A DNA stretch of 64,000 bases from Pseudomonas sp. R84 (GTDB lineage: Bacteria > Pseudomonadota > Gammaproteobacteria > Pseudomonadales > Pseudomonadaceae). The stretch covers positions 3,771,501 through 3,835,500 of the forward strand of contig NZ_CP019426.1 of the NCBI RefSeq assembly GCF_009834515.1, given 5' to 3'. The position numbers were made by a program, and so were the translations under genes. Below the pieces are notes generated by a model. It was not told the origin of the DNA. It did not search any database and saw only the letters and a list, made by a program, of their open reading frames with translations. Position 1 is the stretch's first letter, and the number at the start of each line of letters is the position of its first letter. Below, piece by piece: positions 5,249-12,285 of this stretch.

Positions 5249-5332
5249 CGCTCACTCCTTGTGATTGGGGCTGGGTGCAGCATAGAGCAGTGATTCGGGT
5301 TTTGAGTGTTCGGCTCTAGACCGGGTCGATGC

Positions 5333-5400
5333 AATCGCGAGCAGGCTCACTCCTACATTTGGAATGCGTTCCCCTGTAGGAGTGAGCCTGCTCGCGATGA
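5333..5400. repeat. REP doublet (inverted pair)
   Basis: Inverted GCGAGCAGGCTCACTCCTAC and GTAGGAGTGAGCCTGCTCGC copies separated by about 20 bases, in the gap between the PLD-like gene and the chelatase gene. Confidence 0.9.
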
Positions 5401-5423
5401 GGCCCGACCAGACACAGAAAGTA

Positions 5424-7090
5424 TCAGAGGGAAATCAGTTCATCGATATGTCGATACTGCGCATCCAATGCCGTCGCCAGATCCTTGGCCCGGCCCAACC
5501 GGATCGGCCCACGCTCGATATCGATCAACAACCCCGGGCACGCCAGCGCCGGTAATCCCGCCCACTGTTTCAGACGCCCATCGGTCACCACCAGCAAGCG
5601 TTGCTGCTCGGCAGGAAAGCGCTTGCGCCGCACCGTCAGCCACTGCCCGGCCTGCTCCAGCGCCGCCAGCAACGGCGTGCCACCGCCTGCACCTAAAGCT
5701 TCCAGCCACACCCGCAAGCCGCTGGACGCCTTCAATCCCTGCACCTGCCATTTCGGCACCGAGCCACTGGCCGTCAACAATGCGAGTCGCGCCCGTTGCC
5801 GGTAAGCATCATCGAACAATTGCGCGAGCAAACCTTTGGCATCGCTCAAGGCCTGATGGCGGCGGGTCGAGGCGGAGGCATCGACGATCACCAGCCACAA
5901 TTCATGCGGTGAGCGCGTGCGCAGTTGAAACAGCAGATCTTCGCGCGTTCGAGGCCGCCCGTTGAGTAACGAACCCGGCCAATTCACCGTACCGCTGCGC
6001 GCCTTATGGCGCTTGCCTTGGCGTCCGTTGTCCAGCTGTCCGGCGCGGGGTCTGGCATTCGCCCCCGCGTCGGATCGGGGGCGAATGCCTAAGGCTTTTT
6101 TGGCCAGCTCGGCACTTCACGGCGAGCGCCGGTGGCAAGAGCAGGCGCCGGCAGGTCGCCCCACTGGCCCTGCCCTTCGCTCGACGAGGCCTGGGTTTCG
6201 GCAGGCGACTGGGCAGGTTGCTGCGGACTCGATGGCGCTTGCTCACGCCGACGATGGCGCAGGGCAAACTCGGCCACAGCGTCGATATCCTCTTCGCCAA
6301 TCTCCTCAGCGCCGCGCCAAGCCGCATGGGCGCGAGCCGCGCGCAACCAGACCAGATCGGCACGCAAACCGTCGACGCCAGCGGCAAAACAACGCTCGGT
6401 GATCTGCGCCAGTGCGGCATCGTCCAGCGCAATATTGGCCAAGACAGCGCGAGCATTTTCGCAACGCACACGCAGGGCTTGTTGCTCGGCTTCCCACTGT
6501 GCGCAGAACGCTTGCGGATCGCTGTCGAAATCCAGACGCCGACGAATGATTTGCCCGCGCTCGGTCGGTGCGGTGTGGCCACTGAGGGCGACGTTCAGGC
6601 CAAAGCGGTCGAGCAGCTGCGGACGCAACTCGCCCTCTTCCGGGTTCATGGTGCCGATCAGCACGAACCTCGCCGAATGCCGATGGGAAATACCGTCGCG
6701 CTCGATCAGGTTGGTGCCGCTGGCGGCAACGTCGAGCAGCAGATCCACCAGGTGATCAGGCAGCAGATTGACTTCATCGACGTAGAGTACGCCGCCGTCA
6801 GCCTTGGCCAGCACGCCCGGCGAGAACTGCGCGCGCCCCTCGCTGAGCGCGGCGTCGAGGTCGAGGGTGCCGACCAGACGTTCTTCGGTGGCGCCCAGTG
6901 GCAAAGTGACAAACTGGCCGCTGGCGAGCAGATCAGCCAGGCCACGGGCCAGGGTGGACTTGGCCATGCCGCGCGGGCCTTCGATCAGCACACCGCCGAT
7001 TTTCGGGTCGATGGCGGTGAGGCACAGGGCGAGCTTGAGGTCATCGGCGCCGACCACGGCGGAGAGGGGAAAATGTGGGGTGTCGGTCAT
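5424..7090 (-). CDS. chlD: ChlD-like cobaltochelatase subunit made by predicted -1 frameshift (AAA+ domain joined to vWA domain)
   Basis: This is the predicted long product of the chlI locus. Translation from ATG 7090 reads the AAA+ domain to codon 332 (AAG, ending at 6095), slips back one base on A_AAA_AAG, and continues in the -1 frame to the stop at 5424, giving about 555 residues. The joined protein has the ChlD/BchD order: AAA+ module, Pro/Gln/Ser-rich linker, a basic stretch (NGRQGKRHKARSG), and a vWA domain with the MIDAS motif DASAS and the later VVTDGR segment. The vWA frame alone (5424-5987) opens only at a GTG inside recognisable family sequence. Upstream of it the frame stays open with no ATG, GTG or TTG as far as the slip site. 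The product should partner ChlI and CobN in ATP-driven cobalt insertion. The joining is inferred from sequence, not shown. Confidence 0.75.
6055..6101 (-). promoter_or_regulatory. Predicted programmed -1 ribosomal frameshift signal: slippery heptamer plus stimulatory hairpin
   Basis: On the minus strand, 6101-6095 is A_AAA_AAG in the ChlI frame, the same heptamer used in E. coli dnaX. A 6-base spacer (6094-6089) holds one codon and the chlI stop TAG. A perfect 13-base-pair hairpin follows: arms 6088-6076 and 6067-6055, GC-rich, with an 8-base loop. Heptamer, spacer length and hairpin all match the classical design, and the -1 frame after the slip runs without a stop through 36 codons into the vWA domain. 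Confidence 0.8.
6089..7090 (-). CDS. chlI: ChlI-like AAA+ chelatase subunit (short product)
   Basis: This 333-residue AAA+ ATPase of the magnesium/cobalt chelatase I type has Walker A as GPRGMAKSTLARGLADLL near residue 40, Walker B as GGVLYVDEVNLLPDHLVDLLLDVA, and the sensor segment GTMNPEEGELRPQLLDRFGLNV. The C-terminal ~45 residues form a Pro/Gln/Ser-rich linker ending PSWPKKP. Together with CobN and a vWA subunit it would power ATP-dependent cobalt insertion into the corrin ring. It follows cobN, separated by a TIR-type repeat at 7152-7310, on the same strand. The stop codon sits inside the frameshift signal described above, so this is the non-shifted product. The ribosome binding site before ATG 7090 is weak. 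Confidence 0.88.
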   Translation of the reverse strand: MTDTPHFPLSAVVGADDLKLALCLTAIDPKIGGVLIEGPRGMAKSTLARGLADLLASGQFVTLPLGATEERLVGTLDLDAALSEGRAQFSPGVLAKADGGVLYVDEVNLLPDHLVDLLLDVAASGTNLIERDGISHRHSARFVLIGTMNPEEGELRPQLLDRFGLNVALSGHTAPTERGQIIRRRLDFDSDPQAFCAQWEAEQQALRVRCENARAVLANIALDDAALAQITERCFAAGVDGLRADLVWLRAARAHAAWRGAEEIGEEDIDAVAEFALRHRRREQAPSSPQQPAQSPAETQASSSEGQGQWGDLPAPALATGARREVPSWPKKP

Positions 7091-7151
7091 TTGGGGTTTC
7101 TCTGTCGTGGTCGTGGGTGTACTTGGTGTGGTGGCGTGTCAGTTGGGGTGG

Positions 7152-7310
7152 CCCTCACCCTAGCCCTCTCCCGGAGGGAGAGGGAACTGACCGAGGTGTT
7201 CTTTCAAGGTACGCCGACCTGAATTATCGAGTTGACTTCGATTCTGAACAGCACACAAATCGGCTCCCTTTCCCCCTCGCCCCCTTGGGGGAGAGGGCTG
7301 GGGTGAGGGG
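7152..7310. repeat. ~160-bp intergenic element with terminal inverted repeats
   Basis: The left end CCCTCACCCTAGCCCTCTCC is mirrored at the right end by GGAGAGGGCTGGGGTGAGGG. The interior (GAATTATCGAGTTGACTTCG) resembles the interiors at 12928-13187. It lies between cobN and chlI. There is no coding capacity, so it looks like a non-autonomous, MITE-like repeat. A third copy is at 61968-62150. Confidence 0.75.
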
Positions 7311-7328: not shown

Positions 7329-10300
7329 CTACATATCTTCCTCAATATCCAGCAGCAGATTCTCCAGCGCCTCTTTATAAGCCCCCGGTTCCTGCCACAT
7401 CCCCCGCTGCTGCGCTTCCAGCATGCGTTCGGTCATATCGCGCAGCGCATGCGGATTATGCTCACGTACAAAATCCCGCGTCGCCGGATCGAGCAAATAG
7501 GCATCCGCCAACAACGCGTACTGGTGGTCATCGATCAACTGCGTCGTCGCGTCAAACGCAAACAGGTTATCAACCGTCGCCGCCATTTCGAACGCGCCTT
7601 TATAGCCGTGGCGCTTGACCCCGTCGATCCATTTCGGATTGGCCGCCCGCGAGCGGATCACCCGATTCAGCTCTTCTTTGAGCGTGCGAATCTTCGGCAG
7701 ATCCGGTTGGCTGTGATCGCCGTGATAACTGGCCGTTGCTTCACCGCGCAGGCTTTCCACGGCGGCGAGCATGCCGCCCTGGAACTGGTAATAGTCGTTG
7801 GAGTCGAGCAGGTCGTGCTCGCGGTTATCCTGATTCTGCAGCACCGCTTGCACCTGGCTCAGACGCTGAACGAATTGCTCGCGGGCGGCGGTGCCTTCGT
7901 CGGAACCGCCGTAAGCGTAGGCGCCCCAATTCAGATAAACCTCGGCCAGATCGTCGCGGCTCTGCCATAAACGACCGTCGATAGCGCCCTGCACGCCCGC
8001 ACCGTAGGCACCGGGCTTGGCCCCGAAGATTCGCCAACCGGCCTGACGCCGCGCCGTTTCTTCATCAAGACCCGATTGCAGCAGAGACTCACGCTCGGCG
8101 CGCACTTTTGCCGCCAGCGGATTGAGATCGTCCGGTTCATCCAGTGCCGCTACTGCCTGCACCGCCGCGTCGAACAGACGAATCAGGTTGGCAAACGCAT
8201 CGCGGAAAAACCCGGAAACTCGCAGCGTGACATCGACGCGCGGGCGGTCGAGCAGACTCAGCGGCAGGATCTCGAAATCGTCGACACGCTGACTGCCGGT
8301 AGCCCACACCGGCCGCACGCCCATCAGCGCCATCGCCTGAGCGATATCGTCGCCACCGGTGCGCATGGTTGCCGTGCCCCAGACCGACAAACCGAGCTGG
8401 CGCAGGTGATCGCCGTGATCTTGCAGGTGTCGCTCAAGAATCAACGTGGCTGACTGGAAACCGATGCGCCATGCGGTGGTGGTCGGCAGGTTGCGCACGT
8501 CCACGGAATAGAAATTGCGGCCAGTCGGTAGCACGTCGAGGCGACCACGGCTGGGCGCACCGCTCGGGCCGGCGGGAACGAATCGGCCGCTGAGGGCGTC
8601 GAGCAGGCCGCGCATTTCGGCGGGGCCGCAGGCATCCAGGCGTGGGGCGACGACTTCGCGCAGGTGGTCGATGATTGCGCCGACTTCAGCCCAACGCGGT
8701 CCCTGTAGGAGTGAGCCTGCTCGCGATAGCGGTGTGTCAGGCAAATCTGTATCGCATGACACTCCGCTATCGCGAGCAGGCTCACTCCTACAAGGGGATT
8801 GCAGCGTCTGGAAAATCAGTTCAGTGGCAAACAGTTCGAGGCGTTCGCGGGTATCGCCAGCGGTGCGCCAGACTTCGTCGCTTTGCGATTGCAGGTGCTC
8901 GGGGCGTGGGCCTGCCCATGGATCGGCTAGTGCGCAATCGAGCGGATCGAATCCGAGTTCGAATGCTTTGGCCAGTGCGCGCAGCAGGCTCGATTGCGCG
9001 CCCTTCCCGTCTCCGCGTGGAATGCGCAGCAACGCCAGCAACGTATCAATCCGCAAACGCCCCGTCGGTGACTCACCGAAGACGTGCAAGCCATCGCGAA
9101 TCTGCGATTCCTTCAAATCACACAAATACGTATCGAGACGCGGTAGCCAGATCGCCGCATCAGCATCGCTGTCCAGCCCGGCATCGAGTTGCAGTTCGCG
9201 GTCGATCTGCGTTTCGCGCACCAGTTGCAGAATGTCGCGTTGCAACTCGCGGGCACGGCGCGGATCAAGCAGTTGCGCTTCGTAATACTCGTCGGCCAGC
9301 AGCTCCAGATTGCGCAGCGGGCCGTAGGTTTCGGCGCGGGTCAGCGGCGGCATCAGGTGGTCGATGATCACCGCTTGCGTGCGCCGCTTGGCCTGGGCGC
9401 CCTCGCCCGGGTCGTTGACGATAAACGGATAGATGTTCGGCAGCGGCCCGAGCAACGCATCCGGCCAGCAGTTTTCCGAAAGCCCGACGCCTTTGCCCGG
9501 CAGCCATTCAAGGTTGCCGTGCTTGCCGACGTGGATCACGCCGTGCGCGCCGTAGGTATTGCGCAGCCAGAAATAGAACGCCAGATACGCGTGCGGCGGC
9601 ACCAGATCCGGGTCGTGATAGACCGCACTCGGGTCAACCTGATAACCGCGCGCCGGTTGAATGCCGACGAAGGTCAGGCCGAAGCGCAGACCGGCAATCA
9701 TCATCCGCCCGTCGCGGCACATTGGATCGTTTTGCGGCGCGCCCCAGCGCTCGATCACTGCGGTTCGATTGGCCTCGGGCAGCGCGTTGAACATCGTCAG
9801 GTAAGCGTCCATCGCCAGGCTTTGCTGGCACGGGCGCAGGTCAATCGTGTCGAGATCGTTGCTGACGCCGCCGAGCAATTGCTGGATCAACTCGGTGCCG
9901 CTATTCGGCAGCTCTGCCGTGATCGGATAACCCTCAGCCTGCAACGCGCGAAGAATATTCAGCGCCGCCGCCGGCGTGTCGAGGCCGACGCCGTTGCCGA
10001 TGCGTCCGTCGCGGGTCGGGTAGTTGGCGAGGATCAGCGCGATGCGTTTTTCGCCATTCGGCACCCGCGCCAGATCGATCCAGCGCCGCGCCAGTTCGGC
10101 GACAAAATCCATGCGTTCGGGTTGCGCACGATAGCAGACCACATCGGACTGACTGCGCTCACTGCGCCAGGCCAGATCCTTGAAGCTGATCGGCCGGCTG
10201 ATGATGCGCCCGTCGAGTTCCGGCAAGGCAATGTGCATCGCCAGATCGCGCGGGCCGAGGCCTTGCTCGCTGTCGCGCCAGCCGGGCTCGTTGTCCTGCG

Positions 10301-11177
10301 CGCAGATCGCCTGGATCACCGGAATATTGCGGCGAAACGGCCGCAGATGCGGCGCTTCGGGGCTGGACTGAGCGAATCCGGTGGTGTTGAGAATCACCCC
10401 CGCCTCGACTTCATCCAGCCAATCCTCGACCACCGCCAGGCAGCCGGGTTCTTTCAGACTGGCCACGGCGATCGGCAGCGGATTCAACCCCGCTGCCTGC
10501 AAGCGCTGGCAGAACACATCGATGAACGCGGTGTTCGCCGCTTGCAAATGCGAGCGGTAAAACAGCACCGCCGCAACCGGGTTTTCCGGCAGCCATTCGG
10601 CTTGCCAGTCACTCAGTGCGGCGCTGGTTTTATTCGGGTGGTAAATCGCCGTGCGCGGCAGGGTCTGCGGTTCTTCCCAGGCGTAATCGCGGGAGAGCCA
10701 ACGGCTGGCCAGACAGCGGAAGAAATCCAGCGCATTGCCCATGCCGCCCTGACGCAGGAATTGCCAGAGCCGGTCGCGTTCCTCGGCGTTGACGGTGCTC
10801 AAGTCGCTGAGTTCCGGATCGGGACGGTCATCGCCCGGTACCAGAATCAACTGCACACCACGCTCGGACAGCTCGACCAGCCGCTCGACACCATAGCGCC
10901 AATAGGCAATGCCGCCATGCAGCGAAATCAGAATCACCTTGGCGTGGCGCAGCACTTCATCGACGTACAGATCGACCGAGGCGTGATTCTGCACCTGCAT
11001 CGGATTGGCCAGACGCAGGCTCGGATAATCTTCCGGCAACTGCTGCGCGGCTTCGGCGAGCAGCGCCAGGCTGGAGTCGCCGCTGCACAGGATCACCAGC
11101 TCGGCGGGGGTTTGTCCAAGGTCGGCAATGTTGTCATCCGAGACGAATCCGCCGGGCTGAGTCCTGAGCAGGTGCAT
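7329..11177 (-). CDS. cobN: Cobaltochelatase large subunit CobN
   Basis: This 1282-residue protein is the large, corrin-binding subunit of aerobic cobaltochelatase, which inserts Co2+ into hydrogenobyrinate a,c-diamide with ATP-driven partners. Family landmarks seen are RIALILANYPTRDGRIGNGVGLDTP, the YLAFYFWLRNTYGAHGVIHVGKHGN segment (HVGKHGNLEWLPGKGV), and the C-terminal PKWIDGVKRHGYKGAFEMAATVDNLFAFD. It starts at ATG 11177, three bases after the cobW stop, so the two are one operon below the cobalamin riboswitch. About 33 residues (CRSEPARDSG to SLLQG) are encoded by a REP doublet at 8701-8798 inserted in frame, just before the conserved PRWAEVGAIIDHL. The chelatase partners ChlI/ChlD lie directly downstream. 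Confidence 0.95.
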   Translation of the reverse strand: MHLLRTQPGGFVSDDNIADLGQTPAELVILCSGDSSLALLAEAAQQLPEDYPSLRLANPMQVQNHASVDLYVDEVLRHAKVILISLHGGIAYWRYGVERLVELSERGVQLILVPGDDRPDPELSDLSTVNAEERDRLWQFLRQGGMGNALDFFRCLASRWLSRDYAWEEPQTLPRTAIYHPNKTSAALSDWQAEWLPENPVAAVLFYRSHLQAANTAFIDVFCQRLQAAGLNPLPIAVASLKEPGCLAVVEDWLDEVEAGVILNTTGFAQSSPEAPHLRPFRRNIPVIQAICAQDNEPGWRDSEQGLGPRDLAMHIALPELDGRIISRPISFKDLAWRSERSQSDVVCYRAQPERMDFVAELARRWIDLARVPNGEKRIALILANYPTRDGRIGNGVGLDTPAAALNILRALQAEGYPITAELPNSGTELIQQLLGGVSNDLDTIDLRPCQQSLAMDAYLTMFNALPEANRTAVIERWGAPQNDPMCRDGRMMIAGLRFGLTFVGIQPARGYQVDPSAVYHDPDLVPPHAYLAFYFWLRNTYGAHGVIHVGKHGNLEWLPGKGVGLSENCWPDALLGPLPNIYPFIVNDPGEGAQAKRRTQAVIIDHLMPPLTRAETYGPLRNLELLADEYYEAQLLDPRRARELQRDILQLVRETQIDRELQLDAGLDSDADAAIWLPRLDTYLCDLKESQIRDGLHVFGESPTGRLRIDTLLALLRIPRGDGKGAQSSLLRALAKAFELGFDPLDCALADPWAGPRPEHLQSQSDEVWRTAGDTRERLELFATELIFQTLQSPCRSEPARDSGVSCDTDLPDTPLSRAGSLLQGPRWAEVGAIIDHLREVVAPRLDACGPAEMRGLLDALSGRFVPAGPSGAPSRGRLDVLPTGRNFYSVDVRNLPTTTAWRIGFQSATLILERHLQDHGDHLRQLGLSVWGTATMRTGGDDIAQAMALMGVRPVWATGSQRVDDFEILPLSLLDRPRVDVTLRVSGFFRDAFANLIRLFDAAVQAVAALDEPDDLNPLAAKVRAERESLLQSGLDEETARRQAGWRIFGAKPGAYGAGVQGAIDGRLWQSRDDLAEVYLNWGAYAYGGSDEGTAAREQFVQRLSQVQAVLQNQDNREHDLLDSNDYYQFQGGMLAAVESLRGEATASYHGDHSQPDLPKIRTLKEELNRVIRSRAANPKWIDGVKRHGYKGAFEMAATVDNLFAFDATTQLIDDHQYALLADAYLLDPATRDFVREHNPHALRDMTERMLEAQQRGMWQEPGAYKEALENLLLDIEEDM
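8701..8798. repeat. REP doublet inside the cobN coding sequence
   Basis: Inverted TGTAGGAGTGAGCCTGCTCG copies about 98 bases end to end lie entirely within cobN and are translated without interrupting the frame. The same sequence occurs at 17948-18046 in an intergenic region. Confidence 0.92.
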
Positions 11178-11180
11178 GGT

Positions 11181-12254
11181 TTAAACGCTGAGCGCAGCGC
11201 GCAGTTGCGCTTCGAGTTGGGCGGCGTCGAGTTCCTGACCGATCAACACCAGACGCGTGACGCGCGCTTCATCGGCGCCCCACTGACGGTCGAAGTGCTT
11301 GTCGAAACGCGTGCCGACGCCTTGAATCAGCAAGCGCATTGGCTTGTTCGGGATGGCGGCGAAACCTTTGACACGGAGGATGCCGTGCTTGACCACCAGT
11401 TGCGTCAGGGCGTCGAGCAGCAGGCTTTCATCGGCTTGCGGCAGTTCGATGGAGATCGAATCGAAGGCGTCGTGATCGTGGTCATCGTGGTCGTCATCGC
11501 CTTCACCGTGGTGATGATCATGGTGGCTGTGGCGACTGTCGATGTGTTCTTCGGAACCGGCGCCAAGGCCGATCAGCACGTCCAGCGGCAGACGGCCGTT
11601 GCTGGCTTCGATGATTTTCACCGCCGGTGGCAGCTCTTCGGCGACTTCAGCGCGCACGCGAGCGAGATCTTCCGGACTGGTCTGGTCGGCCTTGTTGAGA
11701 ATGACGAGGTCGGCGCTGGCCAGTTGGTCAGCGAACAGTTCGTGCAGCGGCGATTCGTGATCGAGATTCGGATCGAGTTTGCGCTGGGCGTCGACCTGAT
11801 CCGGGAACGCGGCGAAGGTGCCAGCGGCTACGGCCGGGCTGTCGACCACGGTGATCACCGCGTCAACGGTGCAGGCGCTGCGGATTTCCGGCCACTGGAA
11901 CGCTTGCACCAGTGGTTTTGGCAGGGCCAGGCCCGAGGTTTCGATGAGGATGTGGTCGAGGTCGCCGCGACGCGCGACCAGTTCGCGCATCACCGGGAAG
12001 AATTCTTCCTGAACGGTGCAGCACAGGCAGCCGTTGGCCAGTTCGTAAACGCGGCCGGTGGCTTCTTCTTCGGTGCAGCCGATGGTGCATTGCTTGAGGA
12101 TTTCACCGTCGATGCCCAACTCGCCAAACTCATTGACGATCACCGCGATACGACGGCCCTGCGCGTTGTCGAGCATGTGCCGCAGCAATGTGGTCTTGCC
12201 CGAGCCGAGGAAGCCGGTGACGATGGTGACGGGGAGTTTGGCCAGTGTTTTCAT
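11181..12254 (-). CDS. cobW: CobW-type GTP-binding metallochaperone
   Basis: This 357-residue G3E P-loop GTPase has Walker A GFLGSGKTT at residues 14-22, the metal-binding CxCC-type motif GCLCC at 75-79, and a NKAD guanine-specificity motif. A His/Asp-rich metal-binding stretch of about 25 residues sits near 237-262. G3E proteins deliver metals to target enzymes; next to cobN the likely metal is cobalt. The start was moved to ATG 12254 (MKTLAKLPVTIVTGFLG), because the family begins here and the longer frame adds 16 unrelated residues. It is the first gene after the minus-strand cobalamin riboswitch, followed by cobN three bases on. The His-rich loop may buffer or sense metal. Confidence 0.92.
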   Translation of the reverse strand: MKTLAKLPVTIVTGFLGSGKTTLLRHMLDNAQGRRIAVIVNEFGELGIDGEILKQCTIGCTEEEATGRVYELANGCLCCTVQEEFFPVMRELVARRGDLDHILIETSGLALPKPLVQAFQWPEIRSACTVDAVITVVDSPAVAAGTFAAFPDQVDAQRKLDPNLDHESPLHELFADQLASADLVILNKADQTSPEDLARVRAEVAEELPPAVKIIEASNGRLPLDVLIGLGAGSEEHIDSRHSHHDHHHGEGDDDHDDHDHDAFDSISIELPQADESLLLDALTQLVVKHGILRVKGFAAIPNKPMRLLIQGVGTRFDKHFDRQWGADEARVTRLVLIGQELDAAQLEAQLRAALSV

Positions 12255-12256
12255 CG

Positions 12257-12285
12257 GTATGCCCTTTGGCAAGCGGCGGGCATAC
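12257..12285 (-). promoter_or_regulatory. Hairpin over the cobW ribosome binding site
   Basis: On the minus strand GTATGCCC (12285-12278) pairs perfectly with GGGCATAC (12264-12257), which lies two bases before the cobW ATG and takes in part of the AAAGGG ribosome-binding segment. It fits a translation-blocking arm of the upstream cobalamin riboswitch; the pairing switch itself is inferred. Confidence 0.5.

What the first reader, a model, noticed from the sequence alone, without database searches (positions are those of the whole stretch)
6055..6101. Programmed -1 frameshift predicted to make ChlI and ChlD from one gene
The chlI frame ends in A_AAA_AAG, then 6 bases including the stop codon, then a perfect 13-bp hairpin with an 8-base loop. 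This is the dnaX layout. After a -1 slip the frame stays open for 36 codons and enters a vWA domain that has no proper start of its own (only a GTG within conserved sequence). The joined product has exactly the AAA+/linker/vWA order of ChlD. I recall reports that chlD-type chelatase genes generate two subunits by frameshifting, so the principle has precedent; the site here was derived directly from this sequence. Two of the three chelatase subunits, with CobN as the third, would thus come from one start codon at a fixed ratio.
Basis: partly seen in the sequence, partly recalled or inferred. Interest (0 to 1): 0.85.

Follow-up and report, generated by a model that had tools for sequence, protein, structure and literature searches.

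The report
Frameshifted ChlI/ChlD cobalt-chelatase gene in Pseudomonas
A bacterial vitamin B12 gene carries a built-in ribosome slip site that should let one message make two enzyme subunits; the site is real and well kept among its relatives, but this kind of slip in this gene is already in print.

Summary
The finding is correct, but the phenomenon is already published.

On the minus strand, chlI (333 aa) ends in A_AAA_AAG (6101-6095), CCT, TAG (6091-6089). The G of that stop opens a perfect 14-bp hairpin with an 8-nt loop (6089-6054). A -1 slip adds 223 codons holding a vWA domain: a 555-aa, 60-kDa ChlD.

I sampled 199 genomes of the genus (Pseudomonas). The vWA part lies in 189 and the junction can be read in 188. 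A_AAA_AAG is present in 185 of 188; the other three loci carry further breaks. Among 182 clean loci the linker evolves as protein in the -1 frame, and 40 have no ATG, GTG or TTG from which a separate vWA gene could start ahead of its conserved W. One informative hairpin pair is never mismatched (0 of 171). No CobS, CobT or second ChlI/ChlD was found in this genome.

Antonov 2013, Atkins 2016 (printing the P. protegens hairpin) and Kuznetsov 2022 already describe this, naming Pseudomonas.

One pattern I did not see in print: Pseudomonas sites end in AAG, with no tRNA-Lys(CUU) found in 66 survey genomes. Burkholderiales sites end in AAA, and three of three Caballeronia genomes carry tRNA-Lys(CUU). 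That is a single contrast, hence a hypothesis.

The parts
6089..7090 (-). chlI: 0-frame product, 333-aa AAA+ small subunit
   Evidence: AAA_5 and AAA_lid_2; N-terminal matches to TIGR02442 (415 bits) and TIGR02030 (349 bits), each below its curated cut-off
6095..6101 (-). slippery heptamer A_AAA_AAG (Lys-Lys)
   Evidence: present in 185 of 188 readable junctions of the genus sample
6089..6091 (-). 0-frame stop codon TAG, one codon after the heptamer; its G pairs in the hairpin
   Evidence: TAG 124, TGA 55, TAA 3 of 182 clean loci
6054..6089 (-). downstream hairpin, 14 bp, 8-nt loop; both arms also code for protein in the -1 frame
5424..6095 (-). -1 frame extension: 223 codons, linker plus vWA domain (VWA_2); joined to ChlI residues 1-332 gives a 555-aa ChlD
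5985..5987 (-). GTG, the first start-type codon of the vWA frame downstream of the slip site; not conserved as a start
   Evidence: GTG in 52 of 182 clean loci, otherwise ATC 86, GTC 27, ATT 14, GTA 2, GTT 1
7329..11177 (-). cobN, large subunit of the cobaltochelatase, upstream in the same direction
   Evidence: TIGR02257 1735 bits against a cut-off of 822
11181..12257 (-). cobW, upstream neighbour of cobN
   Evidence: TIGR02475 530 bits against a cut-off of 332

Best explanation
The chlI/vWA pair is one gene, fs-chlD. Ribosomes that stay in frame stop at TAG and make the 333-aa AAA+ subunit (ChlI, the CobS-like role). A fraction slip back one base when two tRNA-Lys(UUU) sit on A_AAA_AAG and the hairpin hinders the ribosome; they read GCC TTA GGC and onwards and make the 555-aa AAA+/linker/vWA subunit (ChlD, the CobT-like role). 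With CobN these form the aerobic cobaltochelatase of B12 synthesis. Shown here: the anatomy, conservation, protein-level selection on the -1 linker, signs of selection on pairing, no alternative start ahead of the vWA core in many relatives, and no other small or medium subunit found in this genome. Inferred: that the slip is ribosomal, its rate, and the assembly of both products with CobN.
For: Heptamer in 185 of 188 readable junctions; 182 of 182 clean loci use AAA then AAG for the two Lys, although AAG:AAA is 529:277 elsewhere in chlI. Between close pairs, 132 of 179 single-base codon differences in the linker are synonymous in the -1 frame, against 23 of 169 and 22 of 173 in the other frames. 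The one combination that would break hairpin pair 6 (ATC with AAT) is seen in 0 of 171 readable loci, although the Ile third base changed 17 times on the tree. 40 of 182 loci have no ATG/GTG/TTG for a separate vWA gene ahead of the conserved W. Own genome: no CobS, no CobT, and outside this locus only four weak matches to the chelatase model (E 3.6e-14 to 1.3e-5), the best being a 569-aa vWA protein without the AAA+ part (the other three were not looked at). Of lysine tRNAs only UUU was found in this genome by pattern, two genes. In print: a chelatase cluster that includes Pseudomonas, with three members tested at 63, 40 and 10%.
Against: No product was observed. The three cassettes tested in 2013 had runs of 11, 9 and 7 A, not A6-G, so the Pseudomonas site itself is not shown as tested in what I could read. 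The hairpin window is the most stable of its locus in only 107 of 182, and in 41 of 182 at least ten other windows fold as well, so the structure is weak in part of the sample. The window has no Shine-Dalgarno-like 4-mer (AGGA, GGAG, GAGG, AAGG) 5-18 nt upstream of the heptamer; 36 of 182 loci have one.
Confidence: 0.94

Rival explanations
1. Two separate genes: the vWA protein is made by reinitiation or translational coupling at GTG 5987 or another internal start, with no frameshift.
For: The window has a GTG at 5987 in the vWA frame; annotators list a separate VWA protein in relatives.
Against: GTG in only 52 of 182; no ATG/GTG/TTG ahead of the conserved W in 40 of 182 (rare starts such as ATT or ATC were not counted as starts); the codons before the GTG are under protein-level selection in the -1 frame; heptamer conservation would be unexplained. 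Some internal initiation besides the frameshift is not excluded.
Confidence: 0.03
2. The frame change happens in RNA polymerase (transcriptional slippage on the A run), giving a mixed mRNA pool rather than ribosomal slippage.
For: The site is an A run; of the three published cassettes those with 9 and 11 A gave the highest efficiency.
Against: The run is 6 A in 179 and 7 A in 3 of 182 clean loci; runs of about 8 or more are usually needed (recalled). A selected downstream hairpin fits ribosomes better.
Confidence: 0.04
3. A sequencing error or a decayed pseudogene split by a frameshift.
For: A frame break inside a conserved domain order is the usual sign of an error.
Against: The same break at the same place in 185 of 188 genomes of the sample, and in named genomes. 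The three loci that lack the heptamer carry further breaks in chlI, the vWA part or cobN.
Confidence: 0.005
4. The hairpin is a transcription terminator or a scattered repeat element and not a frameshift stimulator.
For: It is a strong G+C-rich palindrome next to a stop codon.
Against: The terminator scan finds none in 5300-7300; single copy in the genome; it lies inside the -1 reading frame and pairing is kept under substitution.
Confidence: 0.03

Closest known systems
fs-chlD / 'magnesium chelatase' frameshift family (Antonov et al. 2013 NAR, PMC3711429; Kuznetsov et al. 2022, PMC9227772; Antonov 2020 MBE recalled, not held)
   Same: Same gene pair, same -1 direction; Pseudomonas named as member genus in 2013, P. 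aeruginosa listed under the fs-chlD stage in 2022.
   Different: The three cassettes tested had A11, A9 and A7; the site here is A6-G. Of the 2013 paper I saw passages and the section on experimental tests in full; of the 2022 paper parts 1-2 of 4 and search passages.
Pseudomonas A_AAA_AAR magnesium-chelatase site with hairpin (Atkins et al. 2016 NAR, PMC5009743; its section on magnesium chelatase read)
   Same: Heptamer under purifying selection; the printed P. protegens hairpin CTAGGCATCCGCCCCCG... is plainly the same element.
   Different: They call the sequence of the structure not strongly conserved and suggest a triplex; here one silent site in the stem is shown to follow its partner across 171 loci.
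E. coli dnaX -1 frameshift signal
   Same: A_AAA_AAG, close downstream stem-loop, single tRNA-Lys (passages of PMC6787027).
   Different: In dnaX an upstream Shine-Dalgarno-like element helps and the frameshift product is the short one (recalled); here the frameshift product is the long one and the window has no such 4-mer.
CobNST cobaltochelatase and ChlIDH/BchIDH magnesium chelatase
   Same: AAA+ small subunit, AAA+/vWA medium subunit, large CobN/ChlH subunit (PMC9227772).
   Different: There the small and medium subunits come from separate genes.

Membership tests
fs-chlD (-1 programmed frameshift chelatase gene) | Small-subunit frame followed by a vWA-coding frame reached by a -1 shift | tested here: met
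   TIGR02442 matched in two pieces, profile 88-333 and 459-641; each half alone is below the curated cut-off (415 and 76 of 779 bits)
fs-chlD (-1 programmed frameshift chelatase gene) | A_AAA_AAR slip site conserved among relatives | tested here: met
   185 of 188 readable junctions among 189 vWA-bearing genomes of 199
fs-chlD (-1 programmed frameshift chelatase gene) | RNA structure downstream of the slip site | tested here: met
   for the window and most loci; weaker in part of the sample
fs-chlD (-1 programmed frameshift chelatase gene) | cobN present and no separate small subunit in the genome | tested here: met
fs-chlD (-1 programmed frameshift chelatase gene) | Both products made in vivo | not testable with these tools
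   needs reporter or mass spectrometry
dnaX-type signal (considered as what it works like) | Slip site plus close downstream stem-loop | tested here: met
dnaX-type signal (considered as what it works like) | Upstream Shine-Dalgarno-like stimulator | tested here: not met
   no AGGA/GGAG/GAGG/AAGG 5-18 nt upstream in the window; 36 of 182 loci have one; a simple 4-mer test
CobNST with separate cobS and cobT | cobS and cobT genes | tested here: not met
   TIGR01650 none in own genome; PF06213 none in own genome

The most novel reading that the evidence does not exclude
The last base of the fs-chlD slip site is tuned to the host's lysine tRNAs. Where only tRNA-Lys(UUU) exists (Pseudomonadaceae) the site is A_AAA_AAG, on which that tRNA holds weakly; where a tRNA-Lys(CUU) that would hold AAG firmly is also present (shown here for Caballeronia, of the Burkholderiales) the site is A_AAA_AAA. 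The subunit ratio of the chelatase would then be set jointly by the gene and the tRNA pool.
Probability: 0.3. Interest if true: 0.5.

Novelty: already known. Interest (0 to 1): 0.33.

Why it matters
Two of the three subunits of a B12 enzyme would come from one start codon, so ChlI and the AAA+ half of ChlD would be identical in sequence and their ratio set by translation. Annotated relatives seen here list two genes. The loci gathered give a natural series (stop moved, hairpin weak or strong, last base A or G) for testing what sets slip efficiency outside E. coli.

Tried and rejected
Separate-gene, sequencing-error and terminator/repeat readings were tested and rejected. Rfam gave no frameshift-element match at the site; three sub-threshold matches only. 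The best other match to the chelatase model in the genome (L197) is a 569-aa vWA protein without the AAA+ part. The sliding-window fold scan was less clear-cut than expected: the site was the strongest structure in 107 of 182. The tree-based sign test on the Ile/partner pair had too few independent pairs to reach significance (median p 0.25); the P of about 0.007 comes from a cruder placement of 17 changes by branch length on one FastTree. The 94.4% paired figure is inflated because I first kept loci with at least 11 of 14 pairs; the unselected spread is given in the report. Structure prediction and the large protein search were not used. The 2020 MBE paper is not held, so I could not check whether it measured a Pseudomonas site or discusses tRNA-Lys. 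Supplements of papers could not be read.

Full report
Observation. On the minus strand the chlI frame (7090-6089, 333 aa) ends CCA AAA AAG CCT TAG. The heptamer A_AAA_AAG is 6101-6095 and the stop 6091-6089. A hairpin GGCATTCGCCCCCG-ATCCGACG-CGGGGGCGAATGCC spans 6089-6054: 14 pairs, 8-nt loop, the first pair using the G of the stop. Its folding energy beats all 200 shuffles (z -4.2), and the pattern, with up to 3 mismatches, is found once in the genome. After a -1 slip the frame runs GCC TTA GGC ... for 223 codons to 5424 and holds a VWA_2 domain. The NCBIfam cobaltochelatase model TIGR02442 is matched in two pieces, one in each frame, each piece alone below the curated cut-off. The joined product is 555 aa, 60.0 kDa. 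cobN and cobW lie upstream in the same direction.

The genus. 

Conservation. I searched 199 genomes drawn from the genus, own genome included. In 150 the chlI stretch was fetched with its downstream flank (30 loci); all 150 have the vWA part beside chlI. Of the other 49 genomes, 39 have the vWA part and 10 do not; those 10 also gave only weak matches to chlI (best E between 6.6e-11 and 6.2e-8). So 189 of 199 carry the pair. One of these (L164) starts at a contig edge and its junction cannot be read; 188 can. A_AAA_AAG is present in 185 of 188: 182 clean loci (149 of 150, 33 of 39; total), L152 and L175 whose chlI is broken further upstream, and L165 at a contig edge. It is absent in three: L080 (C_AAA_AAG, with further breaks in the vWA part and a cobN split in two), L151 (five A, chlI in three frames) and L189 (chlI in two frames). 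Whether these are errors or decay I cannot tell. Among the 182, the 0-frame stop lies 10 nt from the start of the heptamer in 179, 7 nt in one, and 28 nt, inside the hairpin, in two (L094, L104). The A run is six long in 179 and seven in three. The two lysines are AAA and AAG in 182 of 182, while elsewhere in the same chlI genes AAG outnumbers AAA 529 to 277.

The linker is translated in the -1 frame. In 166 ungapped loci of the 182, the first 41 codons hold no stop in the -1 frame, while all 166 have one in the 0 frame and 101 in the +1 frame. Loci were admitted on being open to the heptamer, so the first count is partly by choice, but of the 150 only L080 failed that. Variation is highest at third positions of the -1 frame. 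Over 43 close pairs, 132 of 179 single-base codon differences after the hairpin are synonymous in the -1 frame, against 23 of 169 and 22 of 173 in the other frames. The codon at the GTG is GTG in 52 of 182, otherwise ATC 86, GTC 27, ATT 14, GTA 2, GTT 1. In 40 of 182 loci there is no ATG, GTG or TTG in the vWA frame between the last upstream in-frame stop and the conserved tryptophan; the window is not one of the 40. In those species the vWA part can hardly start on its own, short of a rare start codon or a truncated product.

The hairpin is selected as RNA. In the fixed 36-nt register, 80 of the 182 clean loci form all 14 pairs and 135 at least 11; with 66 named loci added, some of them the same genomes, it is 116 and 183 of 248. 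Pair 6 is informative: it joins the silent third base of an Ile codon in the 5' arm to the first base of an Asn/Asp codon in the 3' arm. Of 171 loci of the 182 in which both can be read, 57 are ATT with AAT, 88 ATC with GAT, 26 ATT with GAT (a G-U pair), and none ATC with AAT, the only mismatch. The Ile base changed 17 times on the tree: 13 times on branches where the partner stays G, four times on branches where the partner itself changes, and never where it stays A, about a quarter of the tree length (crude P 0.007). A sign test on independent pairs was too small to decide. Against: by sliding-window folding the site is the strongest structure in 107 of 182 loci, among the top 5% in 144, and in 41 of 182 at least ten other windows fold as well, so the stimulator is weak in part of the sample.

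Genome context. No CobS and no CobT was found in the own genome. Outside this locus the chelatase model matches four places weakly (E 3.6e-14 to 1.3e-5); the best is a 569-aa vWA protein without the AAA+ part, the others were not looked at. CobT-like matches occur in 10 of 199 genomes, 8 over the cut-off. Of the 10 genomes without chlI/vWA, 6 have no CobN match and 4 have only a divergent relative with an open frame of 1,445-1,491 aa.

Outside the genus. Among 80 named loci (the best 80 of a capped list, most of them Pseudomonas), 66 have A_AAA_AAR with the vWA part in the -1 frame, 9 are fused in one frame, and 5 show no vWA part: four at or near contig ends and one masked. The 66 comprise 63 with AAG and three Caballeronia with AAA. 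In plasmid records I fetched 11 of 36 hits and analysed 10: Azotobacter has AAG; seven of eight Burkholderiales records (Caballeronia, Cupriavidus, Comamonas, Eleftheria, Methylibium) have A_AAA_AAA; Cupriavidus sp. EM10 stops earlier in the chlI frame and has six A followed by G further on; Granulicella is fused. Ten fused genes, the nine plus the masked L277, come from genomes with no second ChlI-like place better than E 7.6e-11. Five of these ten have a strong CobS match (E 1.2e-127 or better, one above the curated cut-off) and five do not, while three of three Caballeronia have a strong CobS match, below the cut-off, as well as the frameshift gene. The completeness of these genomes is not given.

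tRNA. By pattern and ARAGORN the own genome has two tRNA-Lys(UUU) genes and no CUU match. A CUU pattern matched 0 of 66 survey genomes, 0 of 1 P. benzenivorans, 3 of 3 Caballeronia and 2 of 10 genomes with fused genes; all five hits are tRNA-Lys(CUU) by ARAGORN. A tRNA with another body could be missed. The hosts of the other Burkholderiales records were not tested. Sharma et al. 2014 (PMC4066793, passages) state that a CUU tRNA should reduce slipping on AAG, but also that insertion sequences with AAG sites occur in 46 of 83 species with both tRNAs, which speaks against a strict rule. The AAG/AAA split seen here is one contrast between two clades and is offered as a hypothesis.

What is known. 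Antonov et al. 2013 (PMC3711429, section on experimental tests read in full) found a -1 frameshift cluster of 23 chelatase genes including Pseudomonas and measured 63, 40 and 10% for three cassettes with 11, 9 and 7 A. Atkins et al. 2016 (PMC5009743, section on magnesium chelatase read) name the Pseudomonas A_AAA_AAR site and print the P. protegens hairpin. Kuznetsov et al. 2022 (PMC9227772, parts 1-2 of 4 and search passages) list P. aeruginosa under the stage in which fs-chlD makes both subunits. Antonov 2020 (MBE) is recalled only; it is not held. In seven paper searches, most results seen as listings only, and in the passages read, I saw no measurement on a Pseudomonas A6-G site and no tRNA-Lys link for this gene; supplements were not readable.

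Verdict. Observation and interpretation are right; the principle and the genus are already in print. The additions are the counts across the genus sample, the coupled silent site in the hairpin, the loci that lack a separate start, and the possible link between the slip site's last base and the lysine tRNAs.

Noticed in passing
L280 (Alphaproteobacterium MAG), fused ChlID gene, codon 375 from the match start: An in-frame fused ChlID gene has a nine-A run in its linker with a -1 stop five codons on: a possible mirror-image (dnaX-like) site that would give the short subunit by slipping. That genome matches tRNA-Lys(CUU) and CobS.
   Followed up: partly
L267, L269, L272, L275, L278: Genomes with a fused ChlID and CobN but no second ChlI-like place and no strong CobS match: the source of the small subunit is unclear.
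   Followed up: partly
L271, L274, L276 (Caballeronia): Carry both a frameshift chlI/chlD and a strong CobS match, so a frameshift gene does not always mean that a separate small subunit is missing.
   Followed up: partly
L094 and L104: The TAG after the heptamer is CAG; the 0-frame stop is a TGA inside the hairpin, so unslipped ribosomes must enter the hairpin before stopping.
   Followed up: no
G060, G082, G180, G185: Survey genomes without chlI/vWA but with a divergent CobN/ChlH-like match in an open frame of 1,445-1,491 aa; G060 and G185 also match CobT.
   Followed up: no
window 8695-8792, inside cobN: cobN contains an in-frame stretch (CRSEPARDSGV...LSRAGSLLQG) whose DNA holds the inverted GTAGGAGTGAGC / GCTCACTCCTAC repeat seen elsewhere in the window (3567, 5345/5376, 17952/18028, 51285/51324): possibly a repeat element inserted in the coding sequence; relatives were not compared.
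   Followed up: partly
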